Shown here one piece after another: positions 41,960 to 51,490 of a stretch of 64,000 nt of DNA. Position numbers and translations under genes: made by a program. The stretch covers positions 682,001 through 746,000 of the forward strand of contig NADL03000614.1 in the NCBI GenBank assembly GCA_002205965.3, written 5' to 3'. Every line of letters starts with the position of its first letter. Position 1 is the stretch's first letter. Under the pieces are notes generated by a model, which did no database searches, was not told the origin of the DNA, and worked only from the letters and a program-made list of their open reading frames with translations. The DNA comes from Kappaphycus alvarezii (taxonomy: Eukaryota > Rhodophyta > Florideophyceae > Gigartinales > Solieriaceae).

Positions 41960-43300
41960 TGCTGCCTAACACGAACTCATAAATCTCGCTGGTGCCTACT
42001 CTGCGTTCAGGTCCCTTGCGAAAACATCGGCAAACTACGAGCCTCCTGAGCTCCAACGTTCGGATATTGTCTCGTTGGATACCATAACACCTCATGGTGA
42101 TCTCGCTGCCATCTGGTCCGGGCTTCGTGCCAAAATTTTCCGCTTCGAGTCGCCTTATTGTGCTGGGTCCCCGCTTCCTCCGTCGCCACTTCCTCCGAGA
42201 AGTTGACTGTATCATTTATTACAAGCTTTCACGTTTCCTTGAAAACCAAAATATCGCGCGGCTCTCTCCGCTAATACTCCAGATTCATTCTAAGAGTCAC
42301 ACCGATGCTCCTCCTCCCAACGTCACGAATGATGGCTGGGCTGTTGTCGGATCCGGATTCTCTTCGTCCCTTCAAACCTCTATTCCTAAACCTGCCCTTC
42401 CTTCCGCTGCTCCAATCCCCCCTTCCCAATCCAACGTCGACAATTGCTATGGAGACGTCGTCGAAAATTGCTATGGATGTCTAGAATATGTACCACCTCC
42501 TGCAACGACCATAGATGACTACACTTATTATAGAAGACTCCTTACAGTCTTCCCCGTCATTCCATTCCCGCCGCACTGTTTCCGCATCCTTAAACCTCTT
42601 CATCATCGCGAAATGCCCTCCTCCCTCCACCATACGCCGTCTCCTAGTCCCTACTGTCAACTATATTCCTAATTGCCTCCGGTCTGTCTTTAATGATCTA
42701 ATGGGTAGCCTTTTCATTGTATTTCTGCGTGCTAGGACTGACGCTGATCTCTGAGGGACTTTTCTAGGATTTAAGCTGTCGGGAAATTGGCCACAAGGAA
42801 AGACGAGAAAGAAGAATCGCGTAATCAAAAACACCTTGCACTAACTATATCCCTAAACACCCGCTTCGTTGCGCAAAGAATGGCGGCTGGCATTACCTCT
42901 TCGAAGTGCCACGAACGCATTCGGATCTCTCCCTTCGTCGCTGTCTCCGCGTTCCCATTATCCTTTCCGTCGAACACGTCAACTAATGTTCGAAGGGGCT
43001 GCCAGCAAAGCAGCTCGGTCTATCTGCTGCGATACCCCTGCTCTATTCACTCTAGGATCGGATATACCTTCCAAGAGTAAAACACCCAAACGTTTCCCCC
43101 TCTAGGAAGTGATGTGATTCTAAAATCTTTGCACCCTCCCCATCCATGCCGGTTCACCTCTGTCTTCCATCAAAACTTCCTTCTCCCTATACATTTACAG
43201 AGGCAGATGTGCGCCGCGGCCTCAAGACCCTTCCATTTCGCAGTGCACCTGGTCTCGATGCATTTCGTGCGGGAGTGCTACGATCTCTCTCACATAACCG
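41960..43300 (+). mobile_element. LINE-like fragment, N-terminal part to start of reverse transcriptase
   Basis: Plus-strand pieces in changing frames. A Ser/Pro-rich N-terminal part (42094-42560) carries a 24-bp tandem duplication at 42434-42480 that encodes NVDNCYGDVVENCYG. Next come LVPTVNYIPNCLRSVFNDLM, the conserved stretch before the reverse transcriptase, and then FTEADVRRGLKTLPFRSAPG followed by LDAFRAGVLRSL at about 43198-43300, the family's usual entry into the polymerase domain. The rest of the polymerase and the nuclease are missing. A 43-bp LINE tail is inserted at 43058. Several frameshifts and stops are present. Confidence 0.6.
43058..43100 (+). mobile_element. 43-bp LINE 3'-tail insertion with 7-bp target duplication
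   Basis: Only the last 43 bp of the LINE tail are present (tcggatatacc, ccaagagtaaaacaccc, aaacgtttccccc). tctagga occurs immediately on both sides (43051-43057 and 43101-43107). The host is another LINE fragment, so the insertion is younger than it. Confidence 0.85.
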
Positions 43301-43534
43301 TGGGGTTTCCGAGCCAACCGACTCTTCTCTCTCAGTCTTTACGCAATTGCAAAATAACACAGGCTTCAGGAGAGGAGGCACCGAGGCACTCCAAAACCAA
43401 GGGCTGGAATCGGAAACCCGGGTCGCGGGAGGCTTGGAAGGAGGGCACCAGGTACCTTGACAACTGGATTAATTCCGTTTCTTGGTTCCCCAATCCCGAC
43501 CACTTGTACCAGTTATTTGATGCCCTTCCGAGCA

Positions 43535-43683
43535 TGGTGGTAAATCTTTATGGGTTGTACAATGTCGCACAGAGACTTGCGGAGGGTATTCATAAATTAA
43601 CTACGGATACGGGCGGCGGGTAGAAACCTGTCGCGCCTGCATTATTTGGAGACTAAACGCAAAACGGGTAGCGAAGTCGCGGA
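43535..43683. repeat. Dispersed repeat shared with 14120-14254 and 4292-4318
   Basis: It begins with the 27-bp word found exactly at 4292-4318 and continues with the sequence shared with 14120-14254. The three sites together suggest one repeat family about 150 bp or longer. Confidence 0.6.
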
Positions 43684-43784
43684 GCTCCTGTTGAGGGGAG
43701 GAACCGCGACGGGAAGCAGCGAAGGAAGCAGGGAGGCGGAGAAAACCCTTGCCGTCGTCGCCCAATGCGCTATGGATATCAATC

Positions 43785-43815
43785 GGGGGAAGGTTTAGGT
43801 GTTTTACTCATGGAA
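43785..43815 (-). repeat. Short copy of the LINE 3' tail, minus orientation
   Basis: The plus strand reads gggggaaggtttaggtgttt then tactcatggaa, the reverse of the tail core. It lies 56 bp outside the 3' end of the large minus-strand LINE. No duplication was found around it. Confidence 0.6.
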
Positions 43816-43868
43816 CGCAACGCCTTTTTCGCAAAATACTTTACCTCTCAGCCTTCCGAGCTACCAAA

Positions 43869-46130
43869 GGGGGAAAGGTTTGGGTGTTTTACTCTTGGAA
43901 GATACATCCGATATATCCCATGGTTTTCCAGACGACCACAATCGACTTAAAAAGGGTATACCGATACAGTAATGGGGAAGGAACTACGCTCCCCAAAATG
44001 CTACCTTCAGCCCAGCCATCAAGCAGGCCGCATTGGACATGACGGCTGCTGCAGCGTGCCTTTGCATCAAAACCCTACGAACCTTTCCGTACGTCTCCAA
44101 TACCCTCACGGCCACGTTCCTTGCCACGTCATCAATCCCGACAGGGGAGAGGAGGATATCGTTCTGGTTGCAGTAAGTGCCGTAATGACGATGTTTCTCG
44201 CGCTCTGCGAGTGTTGCGGCAGCGCCTGCGGTAACCGTACTTGGCGAAATATAGCGGCGTGCGGAGGGGTGGGCAACAGTAACGTCGACGGCGATATCGG
44301 TACTGTGATGCCCGTATGCATCGGGTATGTAAATGCCCATTCGTAGCGCGGGGGACTCCGAATGCACAGGTGAATTGAGAACCTGGTAGAGGAGCGGATG
44401 TTCGACGAGGGCGACGATCCCAACTTCCTTGCAGTAGCAGGCAAGGACGTTGCGGAGGATGTGATGACGACGAGTCATTCCGTCGTATTTGCAGGTCAAC
44501 GCGTGTTGACCACTTGGACCTAAGACGGGTGCGACGTCGGCCGAGCGGCGGGAGCAGACCGGACAGCGAGTAGATTCAGGGAATAGCGCGATGCCGAGAC
44601 GTAGAGCCAGAGAGACTTTCCACGTAGAAGAGGACATGTACGTACCGCAGTGGGGGTGAGGAAGCGAAGAGAAAACAGATGAGGTGGAAGATGTGCGCAC
44701 GGAGAGGAGCCGTGCTCAGTCGTGGGCTGCCGCGGACGAGAACAACCTATCGGACTTCGATAGCATGAGTTCTGTTCTGATCGCAGACTGGAGCCTTTCG
44801 CCGGGGACCGGCGATGAACAACGCTCGAAAAGAGCCGTAGCTGTAAGCGACGAAGATAGCTGCGTGTGGCGGGAGGATAAGAGCGAGATGGCGGACCGAG
44901 GGATCTCTTCCAAGTGGCGGTCCTGGGAAAGAGTGAGCAGGTCGGAGATAAGTCCGAAGGAATCAATTACAGATGCTGCGTAAGCAGCCTCGGTAATGTC
45001 TGAAGTTTGCAGGAGACCTAGACCGCCCATAGAGAAGGGGAGAGAGGCTTGGAGCCAGACTCGCTCTGGACAGGGCAGCGGCAATTGGTGAACCGCTTCC
45101 TTCTGCTTCTGATCGAAGCTAGCGGCGAGTACCGCAGATTGAGTGGAGGGAAGCGTACGTAACAAGTGCATGACCTTGGAGGCGTTCGCGCAGAAGCGGT
45201 GTAAGTAGAAAGCCAACTGAACATCATCCAAGTCTCGAAGGGATTGGAAGATGCGGTCAACTGCGTTTTGGCGGCCTGCGAAAAATTGGGAAACAAAAGG
45301 GTCCGAGCCAATCGGGGATCCCAGCACGATAAAACCAGGGGGGTTGAAAAGGGGCAAGGAAGTGCCAAAGGGGAGTGGGAAGGGGAGAAGCCGTAAACTT
45401 GGGTCTTGGCAAGGTTGAGCTGGAACCCTAGTGGACCTCCTTCAAGCTGGATGAAACGGATGGCAGCAGCGGCTTAGGACCGAGGAAGATCAATGTTACC
45501 ATCATCTGCGTACCAAGCGTTCAGGGCAGGTGAGAACTTCTCCTGTAACGATAGCAAGAGAAGATGGAGAGCCAGGGCAAAGAGAAAGGGACCGAGGGGA
45601 TCACCTTGCTGAGTGCCCTCTGAACTACGGACATAGTAGGGTCCAACAGCAAGCTCTGTGGGAGCATCGTAACAAGAGTGTACCCACCGTGCGAGGTCTG
45701 GGGCATGTGTCTGTATGGCTTCCAGAATGCGCTGGCGGGAGATGCAATTGAAAGCGTTGCGAGCGTCGATCTGGACCAAGACGTGATCGTGGAACTCGGA
45801 TCTCTGGGAAAGACGACGCACAGAATGAATTATTGCATCGGTGCCGTTCTTGACGCCTTCCTCGACCTGATGGGGCGGAAGGTAGGACCGGATGGCGGAG
45901 GTGGCTTTGTGTGCCGCGAGCCTAGAAATTAGGCGTCGGTAGAGAAGCCCAACCGCGATCGGACGGATTCCCCGTTCGGCTTCGGCAGCGCAGTAAGACG
46001 GCCTCCACAGAAATACGGGCGGCACGCGGCCGGCAGATCGCCGTTCAAACAAAGGTTGAGGAACTTTGTCAGGGCATGTAGGCAATCCCTCCCGGGCGAA
46101 GCAGCATTCGCAAGAACACTGGGGATAATA
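43869..46130 (-). mobile_element. LINE with restriction-like endonuclease, 5' truncated
   Basis: The best-preserved LINE here. Minus-strand order: reverse transcriptase (46085-45474) with RPIAVGLLYRRLISRLAAHK, EGVKNGTDAIIHSVRRL, LVQIDARNAFN, SSEGTQQGDPLGPFLFAL and the active site AWYADDGN; thumb and connector (45357-44716) with APIG-type GSPIGSDPFVSQFF and SMGGLGLLQTSDITEAAY; zinc-binding CPVCSRR...H..TC; and nuclease YIPDAYGHHSTDIAVDVTVA (PD...DV-T-V) with LAEREKHRHY, ending at 43984. From 45357 to 43984 one frame is broken only by a TGA at 44716-44718; a further break lies between 45357 and 45474. The 3' untranslated tail ends near 43869. Flanks agctaccaaa (near 43858) and agctaaccaa (near 46131) may be a worn target duplication. 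The N-terminal half is absent. Confidence 0.8.
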
Positions 46131-46139
46131 AGCTAACCA

Positions 46140-46170
46140 ATTTTTCGATCATTAAAACACCCCAATTTTT
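46140..46170 (+). repeat. LINE 3'-tail-like sequence
   Basis: It reads ttttcgatcattaaaacacc then ccaatttttcacc, closely resembling 52057-52085. Both carry the AAAACACCC core, but with a different lead-in (ATCATT rather than AAGAGT), so they form a second tail subfamily. It abuts the 5' end of the minus-strand LINE. Confidence 0.5.
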
Positions 46171-47419: not shown

Positions 47420-49243
47420 GAGGTATAGTCGTTCGCAACCCAATCAGAGAGGGAAAGCAGTAATTAATCGCGACAAGTGAACGAGGAACACCGACCCAAC
47501 GGCCATTTCGAGGCCAATTCAATGGTGACCACGGATCTGCCAGAACACATACCACTCGACGGACACAGGTCCCAGTGGGTCTGCCCGCCCGATGTCTGGG
47601 CCAGCGTCTGAACGAGCCTTACCACATGTCGGCTATTGCCCGCTGTGCACCCAGGAAAAACCTCGAATCAAAACTGTCGCACAGCTGTTAGCACACCTTC
47701 GCAGCTCGCATTGTCGGGGCTCTACGCTAGGACCACCTAAGCGTCACGAGCTCGCAAAACTTTCAGAGTACCTATCCACTCTAGGGTATTGATACTGTGG
47801 GTGTCACGACCAGTACATCGGGTCAAGGGTATCCCGCCCCACCTCAGACGGCTTGTATGTATTCCCGTACTCCAACTGCCCAAAATGCAGTGTACGTACA
47901 GCGCCCATGCACTATGTTCCTCTACATGATACACAACTGCGCAGACCCACTACAGTGCCCACCCCTGTCTCAGTTGTAGACGATCCGCCCACCCCGGAGC
48001 GGTTGAGAATCTCCCGGATGGCGCCCAGCCGGACAGTTCAGCCACTCCCCTGGAACCGATCCCCCAGTCACTGCCCCACACGGAGAAAATATTTACTTCA
48101 CACACGCCCATCATGGCACATATTCCTGTGAAATTCCGCACCTGCTTCGCGGAAACTTATGAAAAAGCCATGAATGACGCTGCACAAGCCTGCGAAGATG
48201 GTCACCCTAGCGCCACCAAAGAGTTTGTTAAACTATTCCTATTTCCGGCGGTCATGCTAACGAACCTATCCGACACCAGCTCTTGTACCGAGACACGCTG
48301 GTAATCACTCGCCGACCGAATGAAGGAAAGGTTAGAGCTTTGGAACATTGGGCAATTTGAGACTATTTGGGATCAGGCCACTCAGCAGGCGGCACCCTGT
48401 AGCACGGAATCTACGCAGCAAGAGCTTAATGTCCGGCGAGCAACGAAATTGGCCCAGGAGGGGGCGTACGGTAAGGCCGCCCAGGCATTAAGTTCTCTGG
48501 GGGTCCTCCCACCAACGCCAAGCGTAGTTCATGCGCTCCTCGCCAAACACCCACAACTGCCTGTCGAAACCGAAAATCGAGGACCAATTGCGCTGGAATC
48601 CATCCCCCCATTTCGAGATTTCGGTGAAGAAGAAGTCCTAGCAGCTATAAGAGGTTTTCAACTGGGCTCTTCTGGGGGGTTCCGATCTTCGGCCCAACCG
48701 CCTCGTAGAACTGATAAGGTCTCCGTCTTCATCCGGACACTCTGGATTCTTAGCAGCCTGATGAGTGCAAAATTCTCACACGAAAAGAAAATCTAGATGA
48801 GGACCAAATTTAGATACAGTATCGGAATTTGCAAGATATTTTTACAGTTTCTGAAGTTGCAAGATAGTTTTAATTTGGATGAGTGTGGCAAAATCATGGG
48901 TTGATTTTTTTAAGACACGGCGTCATTAAAAGATGACATTACTGTACACGTACAAGGTCGTCATACTTTTCGAGGACGTCGCAGTGTTTAAAGTTCGAAA
49001 TCGACGTCGTTAAGGCAACCACTCACCATCAACTACCCCATCGGCTCACCCCTTCTGTTGGCCCTTAACATGACCAACCTCCGCCCTTCCCTCACCATCA
49101 CCAAGTCATCCCGAGGCCTTCTTTTACTCAACGATTTGGCCCTGATGGCAAATGGTCCAACTGACTACGACAAATACTGTAGAAGGTTGGACCGGGAACG
49201 TATTCGGGAGTGGGTCCGCCGTAATTGCTTCGAGCAGTCAAAA

Positions 49244-49263
49244 GAGGAGGAGGAGGAGGAGGG
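49244..49263. repeat. GAG microsatellite inside the long LTR
   Basis: About six GAG/AGG units. It encodes a glutamate run in one frame and helps keep several frames open. Confidence 0.8.
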
Positions 49264-49790
49264 AGAAAAGGAAGAGGAGGGGAAGAAGAGGGGGACTGGG
49301 TGGACCCGTCGGAGCCACTAGTGTACCATGGTTGGGGAGCTCTTATAGAGAACGAAGGGGAGACTGAGCGAGTAATTGTGATCTCTGACTCTTCTGACGA
49401 AGATGAAGAGAGGAGTGAAGAGGAGAATGAGGAGGATGGGGGGAGGGAGACATGGAAAGTTCTGGATTAGTGGGGAAGGGGCCAGAAAATATGGACCAGG
49501 TGGTCCCGGCTCCGGAACCAGATGGGGGCGTCTTCAGTGGTCTATATTTCGCAGGAGGAAATTGAGAATTCTAAGCCGTTCTCGGATATTTTTGTGGACT
49601 GCCTGGGTGGAATGGATATTTTGGGGGAACTGTTTGGCTCTGATATAGAGGAGTAAGATATTGAGGAAAAAATCTAGATATTTATCCTGATAGTATCTGC
49701 TGTTAGTCTTTCTCGTTCACACGATTCAATTTGATGCATTTTACGGTCCTTAGTATGTTTCTTTGAGAATTTAGGGTTAGCCAAAAATTC

Positions 49791-49798
49791 TATATAAG
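49791..49798 (+). promoter_or_regulatory. Candidate TATA box of the LTR promoter
   Basis: TATATAAG lies about 310 bp before the LTR end, a plausible place for an LTR promoter. It is absent from the short LTR copy, which lacks this segment. Assigned on sequence alone. Confidence 0.35.
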
Positions 49799-51490
49799 CT
49801 GAGTAAACTGCTTCCCCTTTTGGAGGAAAAGCAAGTTGGCAAACAACTTCAAGCCAAGTCCGGAGTAGTAGGAAGTTCAGAGTCAACTTCAGACCCAAGA
49901 AAATGTTTTCCTACGCTGGTCACAGAGCATTAGTGGTAGACCCTGCCCCTTTCATACTTGCTTGTAACTCTCTCAACTCTCTTCAATATACACTACTTTT
50001 TATTCGTTCAAGTATACCACGGTAGCACTTTTGTCGCTTGCAACACCTCCTTCTTGGGGTACTTGGTTCTGAGTATCTCTTCTCCCGACGATTTACCCCT
50101 ATCACAGCCCTCACGAGAGCCGTGAATACTTTGGCAGGCGGAAGAGCTCCAGCTGCCCTAGCTCCGTGGATAGTGGGAGCACCTCTCACACCCCTAGCGG
50201 AGAGGGACATGACTCCGAGACCAATCGCTGTGGGTGAAACGCTTTGCAGGCTGGCCGGCAGCTGCCTTATGAAAAGAGCAACTGCGAAAGGAGCCAGTTA
50301 CCTGCAACCTTTGCAGGAGAGGATCGCCACTCGTTGTGGAACGGGCAAAGTCGTACACAGCGTTCGACGAGTGGTCCAAAAGTTCGGACATAATTCCGAG
50401 TATGGGATGCTTACCGTGGATTTTGAGAATGCTTTCAACCTATGCAGCTGCTCAGCATTCTCGGATGCCACAATGAACCTCTTCCCCGAGCTTTTGCCGT
50501 GGGTCGCATAATGCTACGCACACGAACCTGCATACCTGTGGGTCAGTGCTCACACTATTCGCGGTGTGCGGGGGAAGCAACAGGGCGATAACCTTGGCGG
50601 CCTCCTGTTAGACCTGGTGCTGCACCCCATCGCACTCAAAATTCAGCAGCTCGTAGCCTCTGGGGACGAAGAAGATGGGAACGTGGGAAATCTCTTGCTC
50701 CAAATGTGGTACCATGACGATGGATACATTATCGGACGCCATGACCATCTCCTCAAAGCGCTCGACATCCTCTCCTCGCTCGATACAACAAACCGAGGAC
50801 TCCATCTTTCGCTGTCCAAATGTAAGGTTTCGTGGCCCTCTGCACCGCCTGAGGCAGTGCAACGCCTTTACCCGATGGAACTCAGACAGGAATAAAGTGG
50901 GGGTACAACTGTCCCCAACGCCCCTGTCGGCTATGCACAGTTTAGTACGCAATTTTTAACCTCTCATGTACATCCCCTCGAAGCATTCCGCAACGCCGTC
51001 GCTGATATTGAGAATACGAGGGTGGCATTTCAGCTTCTGCGCAACTGCTTCGGGGTCTGTAAGATTGGGTATCTATTGCGCGTAGTACCGCCATCGTGCA
51101 CCGCACACGGTGCTGTAATATTTGACGGAATGATGGAGCGTGGCGTCCGAATATTGACTGGGGGAGTCCTCGACTCTGAAAATTTTCGGGAAATGCAACT
51201 ACCTGTCAAATCTAAGGAGGAGAAACCCGTCCATTGGACTAGGATTCACGTCCGCGAAAGATATCGCAAGTGCTGCGTTTCTGGCCCCCAGTTCAGCTTC
51301 CAACAGGCTGTGCGAAAAGGTTTTGCCAGCCTCCATCAGGAGTCTCACCGGCTTTGGTCTCAATCCTGAGCGCCTGTGGGTGCCGGTTAGCTGGATGGAT
51401 TGGTCTGACTCTAATTCTGTGGAAGGCGACGATGTTAATAGCGACGTTGCCGACACATTAGAGCCAAATTCGATTGAGGACGAGGATCAG

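What the first reader, a model, noticed from the sequence alone, without database searches (positions are those of the whole stretch)
43051..43107. A 43-bp LINE insertion with its own 7-bp target duplication
tctagga flanks exactly 43 bp of LINE 3' tail, inside another copy of the same broad family. Very few LINE insertions this short are recognisable. It suggests that this tail is enough to be inserted and that reverse transcription can abort within 50 bases.
Basis: seen in the sequence. Interest (0 to 1): 0.7.

Follow-up and report, generated by a model that had tools for sequence, protein, structure and literature searches.

The report
Very short LINE insertion, verified
A 42-base scrap of the end of a copy-and-paste DNA parasite (a LINE) was really inserted here, with its own small target duplication, and in this genome such tiny insertions are common rather than exceptional.

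Summary
The host is a fragment of another LINE; nine of the 13 host copies whose site I read are plainly empty there. The insert is the 3' end of a dispersed LINE family with 7768 matches to its last 20 bases, up to two mismatches, in the window's 336 Mb genome. It is not rare for being short: of 63 distinct sampled copies, 18 have a tail of 57 bp or less; 28 of 63 carry 7-14 bp duplications, against 14 of 1302 in a swapped-flank control. Stops look uneven: none seen below 32 nt, many at 33-57 and 99-142, fewer between (exploratory). Overlaps at 5' junctions exceed chance. Best explanation: target-primed reverse transcription that ended after about 44 nt, joined upstream through a 2-nt overlap (GA). 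One other host copy (C850) carries a longer tail at the same site; a tree and a shared junction favour a separate insertion, but conversion or later deletion is not excluded. Known kind; unusual abundance and length pattern.

The parts
43050..43057 (.). left copy of the target duplication, CTCTAGGA (its last GA is also compatible with the LINE tail: 2-nt overlap)
   Evidence: empty-site paralogues
43058..43099 (+). 42-bp 5'-truncated LINE 3' end (TCGGATATACC...GTTTCCCC)
   Evidence: dispersed copies sharing this 3' end
43100..43107 (.). right copy of the target duplication, CTCTAGGA
42500..43345 (+). host: fragment of a different LINE lineage, interrupted upstream of its reverse transcriptase domain (42500 is only the start of the stretch compared)
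   Evidence: paralogues; RVT_1 in paralogue L006
43346..43523 (.). sequence that follows the host in the window and in C482 (88% identity) but not in C850, C88, C519 and C830, whose match stops at 43340-43346
43785..44130 (-). second, longer insertion of the same LINE family (263 bp of 3' end, about 53 bp other sequence, then a second tail of about 31 bp) inside another LINE, with 7-bp duplication ATCAATC at 43778-43784 and 44131-44137
   Evidence: the other LINE runs on without it in L066, L061, L057, L043, L060
41409..41452 (+). further tail copy

Best explanation
A non-LTR retrotransposon (LINE) inserted by target-primed reverse transcription. The endonuclease nicked the bottom strand of the host LINE opposite TTCA|CTCT. 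The RNA's 3' end (...TTTCCCC) was reverse transcribed from the nick for about 44 nt, synthesis ended, and the cDNA end was joined to the staggered upstream target end through a 2-nt overlap (GA), leaving an 8-bp duplication. Shown: anatomy, empty sites, dispersed 3'-anchored copies with duplications, excess overlaps at 5' junctions. Inferred: the nick, the order of steps, and that the enzyme stopped early rather than ran off a short RNA. The confidence below is for the target-primed insertion as such; the short-RNA rival is a variant of it.
For: Duplication and empty-site paralogues. Of 66 sampled tail copies (63 after dropping near-duplicates), 30 (28) have duplications scoring 7 or more, against 14 of 1302 in the control. 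The 20-mer nearest the 3' end and the next one are found about equally often (7768 and 8204 with up to two mismatches), which suggests that few fragments lack the 3' end. Long LINE copies end in this tail: L031 and L034 are 97% identical over 1524 bp, and L031 has a 275-aa frame ending before it. Comparable short insertions: L063 33 bp / TTTTGGGGTAC, L070 36-38 bp / CTACCGCTCGG, L067 46 bp / GTTTCGGATGA, L065 35 bp / TATGAGTCGGTT. Overlap at 5' junctions 1.8 nt on average against 0.67 expected, p 1e-4 in a simple simulation (n = 15).
Against: 35 of 63 sampled copies have no duplication passing the threshold; 10 of those 35 have tails of 280 bp or more, at or near the limit of what was searched. 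A longer tail at the same site in C850 leaves room for a longer insertion later cut down. RNA length cannot be read from DNA.
Confidence: 0.88

Rival explanations
1. The insertion was longer (as in C850, about 75 nt of tail) and was inherited by both host copies; an internal deletion later left 42 bp in the window.
For: C850 carries the same tail at the same site. Both filled copies read CTCTAG, where all nine plainly empty copies have C in place of the second T. By plain identity C850's best match among the 12 other host rows is the window, 76%.
Against: The window's nearest relative, C482, is empty: together 95/98 support, and the tree holding window and C850 together is rejected only mildly (AU p = 0.032); five of ten inner branches of that tree are unresolved. 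Window and C482 share a junction at about 43345 that C850, C88, C519 and C830 lack. A deletion would have to end exactly at the duplication and recreate its last two bases.
Confidence: 0.07
2. Variant of the best explanation: the short inserts come from short RNA templates (a processed or degraded 3' fragment of about 33-57 nt), not from an enzyme that stops.
For: 18 of 63 lengths fall in 33-57, none seen below 32, only 7 in 58-98.
Against: Lengths spread over more than 20 nt with no single 5' end, and overlaps with the target vary, as for premature stops or early joining.
Confidence: 0.3
3. Filler DNA captured during break repair, with a chance repeat at its edges.
For: Overlaps at junctions occur in such repair too (recalled).
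Against: Dispersed copies with the same 3' end, a weakly shared target and duplications far above control.
Confidence: 0.03

Closest known systems
5'-truncated human L1 insertions (Kojima 2010, PMC2912911, passages seen)
   Same: 5' truncation, target duplications, overlaps and extra nucleotides at 5' junctions.
   Different: L1 has a poly(A) tail (recalled) and a TT/AAAA target; here the tail ends in CCCC and the target is only weakly shared. Median L1 insertion lengths by class are given as 335-445 bp in tumours and 968-1520 bp in the germ line (PMC13009371, passages seen); here the sampled median tail is 114 bp, with lengths capped near 290.
5'-truncated R1 and R2 elements of Drosophila (PMC2718515, passages seen)
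   Same: Junctions of truncated copies show 1-5 nt that could belong to target or element, or extra bases; early stop, degraded RNA and early second strand are named as causes.
   Different: R1 and R2 insert in 28S rRNA genes; this family is dispersed.
Restriction-like-endonuclease LINEs such as Utopia and R2 (PMC4640811, PMC5678591, passages seen)
   Same: Downstream of a cysteine-histidine knuckle the family has a C-terminal block with conserved RHD, RPD(I) and D-V-T in most rows, suggestive of such an endonuclease (motif recalled).
   Different: Knuckle spacing differs from the printed CX2-3CX7-8HX4C; no match to any solved structure by profile; no strict target.
5' junction types of zebrafish and human LINEs in cultured cells (PMC4245944, passages seen)
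   Same: Duplication length depends on the LINE; truncated copies of some LINEs join mostly through overlaps or extra nucleotides.
   Different: Cell-culture assay of other LINEs.

Membership tests
non-LTR retrotransposon (LINE) insertion by target-primed reverse transcription | common 3' end with variable 5' truncation | tested here: met
   66 sampled copies, tail 33 bp to the 290-bp limit of the search, from one 3' end; the sample required that 3' end, but 20-mer counts agree
non-LTR retrotransposon (LINE) insertion by target-primed reverse transcription | target-site duplication flanking the copy | tested here: met
   window 8 bp; 30 of 66 copies against 14 of 1302 controls
non-LTR retrotransposon (LINE) insertion by target-primed reverse transcription | empty site in a relative | tested here: met
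   nine plainly empty paralogues of 13 read
non-LTR retrotransposon (LINE) insertion by target-primed reverse transcription | longer members encode a reverse transcriptase upstream of the tail | tested here: inconclusive
   L031 and L034 were held only 1.5 kb upstream of the tail and carry long frames there; a related copy at window 50512-50892 matches RVT_1 only at E 0.1, below the cut-off. RVT_1 was clear in the host lineage and in another LINE in the window.
restriction-like-endonuclease LINE | C-terminal endonuclease after a CCHC knuckle, N-terminal zinc fingers | tested here: inconclusive
   conserved C-terminal block but no Pfam match for it at the thresholds used and no PDB match
restriction-like-endonuclease LINE | strict target site (usual, not universal, in this group) | tested here: not met
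   28 targets share only C at -1 (17), C or T at +1 (23) and T at +3 (19)
SINE or other short element with a fixed 5' end | copies with one common 5' end | tested here: not met
   5' ends spread from 33 bp to the limit of the search

The most novel reading that the evidence does not exclude
In this lineage target-primed reverse transcription has discrete early stop zones: a minimum product of about 32 nt, a first zone at 33-57 nt and a second at 99-142 nt. This would make the genome, with thousands of tails, a record of where the enzyme can let go and of the shortest cDNA that can still be joined.
Probability: 0.3. Interest if true: 0.6.

Novelty: new member of a known kind. Interest (0 to 1): 0.42.

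Why it matters
Insertions under about 60 bp are easily missed in repeat surveys (inference), so the early end of target-primed reverse transcription is poorly charted. A family with several thousand 3' ends, in which over a quarter of the sampled copies are 57 bp or less (18 of 63, of which 7 keep a clear duplication), would let stop positions, minimum length, joining and target choice be measured from a genome assembly alone.

Tried and rejected
Counting 20-mers at increasing distance from the 3' end to measure truncation genome-wide (7768, 8204, 4635) proved uninformative: the third 20-mer is poorly conserved even in long copies (26 of 43 pass), so its drop says little about truncation. Tails shorter than 29 bp were sought among sites matching the last 20 bases: of the first 60 rows listed (C1 to C40), 18 were fetched and read, 33 are in the list and so hold the longer core, 2 were read, and 7 were judged from neighbouring matches listed; none was shorter than 29 bp. 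Rfam found nothing in the window. Pfam and PDB gave nothing on the C-terminal block. The organism stayed unnamed: an RPB1 fragment matched RNA polymerase II chains (best 430 bits), which did not place it. Paper searches on short or truncated LINE insertions listed 0 to 15 papers each (two listed none); no title or abstract start shown described such a length pattern, and I read passages of six papers only. The library is partial. The stop-zone boundaries were chosen after seeing the lengths, so their p-values are exploratory. Folding the tail RNA showed no strong structure in the last 44 nt.

Full report
Observation. The window lies in a 336 Mb genome of 884 contigs. The reported letters are present. 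The direct repeat is 8 bp, not 7: CTCTAGGA at 43050-43057 and 43100-43107 around 42 bp. TCTAGGA alone occurs 12 times in the window, 7.35 expected, so its position, not its presence, is the evidence. Because the tail family also has GA before TCGG (several genome copies match 'GA + 43 bp + T' exactly), the junction is ambiguous by two bases.

Host. The flanks belong to a dispersed repeat. Searches with the right and left flanks returned 26 and 15 places, 29 distinct ones. I read the insertion site in 13 of the 29, the window included. Nine are plainly empty (C482, C492, C813, C519, C830, C39, C827, C670, C469); C794 and C25, nearly identical to each other, are empty there but carry another insert about 40 bp downstream; the window and C850 are filled. 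The copy on C519 keeps a frame of at least 549 aa across the empty site with a reverse transcriptase domain (RVT_1, 33.5 bits, cut-off 29.6), so the host is a LINE.

The second filled copy. C850 carries the same tail at the same site, but about 75 nt long, next to a further inserted element of roughly 440 bp with inverted ends; its duplication reads CTCTAG / CTCTATAG. In a tree of 13 host copies, window and C482 group together (95/98); the tree holding window and C850 together is worse by 12.9 log units, AU p = 0.032; five of ten inner branches are unresolved, and C850's highest plain identity is to the window (76%). Window and C482 also continue together past 43345 to 43523 (88% identity), whereas C850, C88, C519 and C830 stop matching at 43340-43346; could not test this because its query ended at 43345. 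On balance this favours two insertions at one place. Against it, both filled copies share a T (CTCTAG) where all nine plainly empty ones have C, and gene conversion is not excluded.

The family. A 21-base core plus CCCC matches 893 + 1496 times (overlapping matches included; reversed-pattern control 0). The last 20 bases match 7768 times with up to two mismatches (control 22). Sample: the first 100 rows are 74 places; identical copies collapsed to 66, and three more near-duplicates dropped leave 63. Measured tail length runs from 33 bp to the limit of about 290. By class, copies with a duplication scoring 7 or more: 7 of 18 (57 bp or less), 13 of 25 (58-150), 7 of 9 (151-259), 1 of 11 (280 or more, at or near the limit); 28 of 63 in all. 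With right flanks taken from other sites the same search succeeds in 14 of 1302 trials. Long elements ending in this tail: L031 and L034, 97% identical over 1524 bp, with long frames.

Length pattern. Stops per base at risk: 0 of 252 at 29-32, 18 of 1364 at 33-57, 7 of 1683 at 58-98, 18 of 1270 at 99-142, 9 of 1866 at 143-259; 33-57 against 58-98 p = 0.008, 99-142 against 58-98 p = 0.004 (bins chosen after seeing the data). Sites chosen by the last 20 bases alone could have shown tails of 20-28 bp; none of 60 did, with about 7 expected at the 33-57 rate (18 of the 60 read, the rest accounted for as told under tried and rejected). The shortest among the 18 is 32 bp with duplication TCTACCAGAT (L106).

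Junctions. Of 30 copies with a duplication scoring 7 or more, 9 have a mismatch in it and were not used. Of the 21 perfect ones I left out two near-duplicates, L049 (whose boundary was misplaced) and three with extra nucleotides; in the remaining 15, target and tail overlap by 1.8 nt on average, 0.67 expected if two chance extensions add up, p about 1e-4. Leaving out the three with extra bases, and the threshold on duplication length, both favour overlaps. Targets: 28 sites, window included, show C at -1 (17), C or T at +1 (23), T at +3 (19) (no control computed); runs of C make the position of the C uncertain.

Mechanism. The anatomy fits target-primed reverse transcription ending early, with joining through a short overlap, as described for truncated L1 and other LINEs (PMC2912911, PMC4245944) and for R1 and R2 (PMC2718515); I saw passages of these papers, not the whole texts. 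Whether the enzyme stopped or the RNA was short cannot be read from DNA. The C-terminal block of the family suggests a restriction-like endonuclease LINE, by motifs partly recalled; the knuckle spacing printed in PMC5678591 is not matched, and Pfam and PDB searches found nothing for it, so I do not file it there.

Verdict. Real, and correctly read as a LINE insertion; ordinary in kind; unusual in how common such short copies are and in the uneven distribution of their lengths.

Noticed in passing
window 43785-44130, minus strand: A 346-bp insertion of the same LINE family with two tails (263 bp ending in a tail, about 53 bp other sequence, a second tail of about 31 bp) and one 7-bp duplication; perhaps read-through RNA ending at a downstream tail.
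   Followed up: partly
window 43535-46148, minus strand: A different LINE lineage with a reverse transcriptase domain (RVT_1, E 2.9e-10), the host of the insertion above.
   Followed up: partly
window 47529-51366, plus strand: Remains of a LINE related to the tail family (63% identity to L031 over 101 aa), with zinc-finger and reverse transcriptase matches below the cut-off.
   Followed up: partly
L008, between the left host flank and the tail (C850): An element of roughly 440 bp with inverted ends CTAGTGTCTA ... TAGACACTAG inserted at the left edge of the tail.
   Followed up: no
L011-L026 (C3, about 29-100 kb): A tandem array with steps of about 12.8 kb (one longer), most units carrying two tails.
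   Followed up: no
L010 549-2504, minus strand: A 652-aa LINE frame stays open through an antisense tail insertion (GERFGCFTLGRYF).
   Followed up: no
L042, L072, L106, L035: Tails inserted in or next to other tails of the same family.
   Followed up: no
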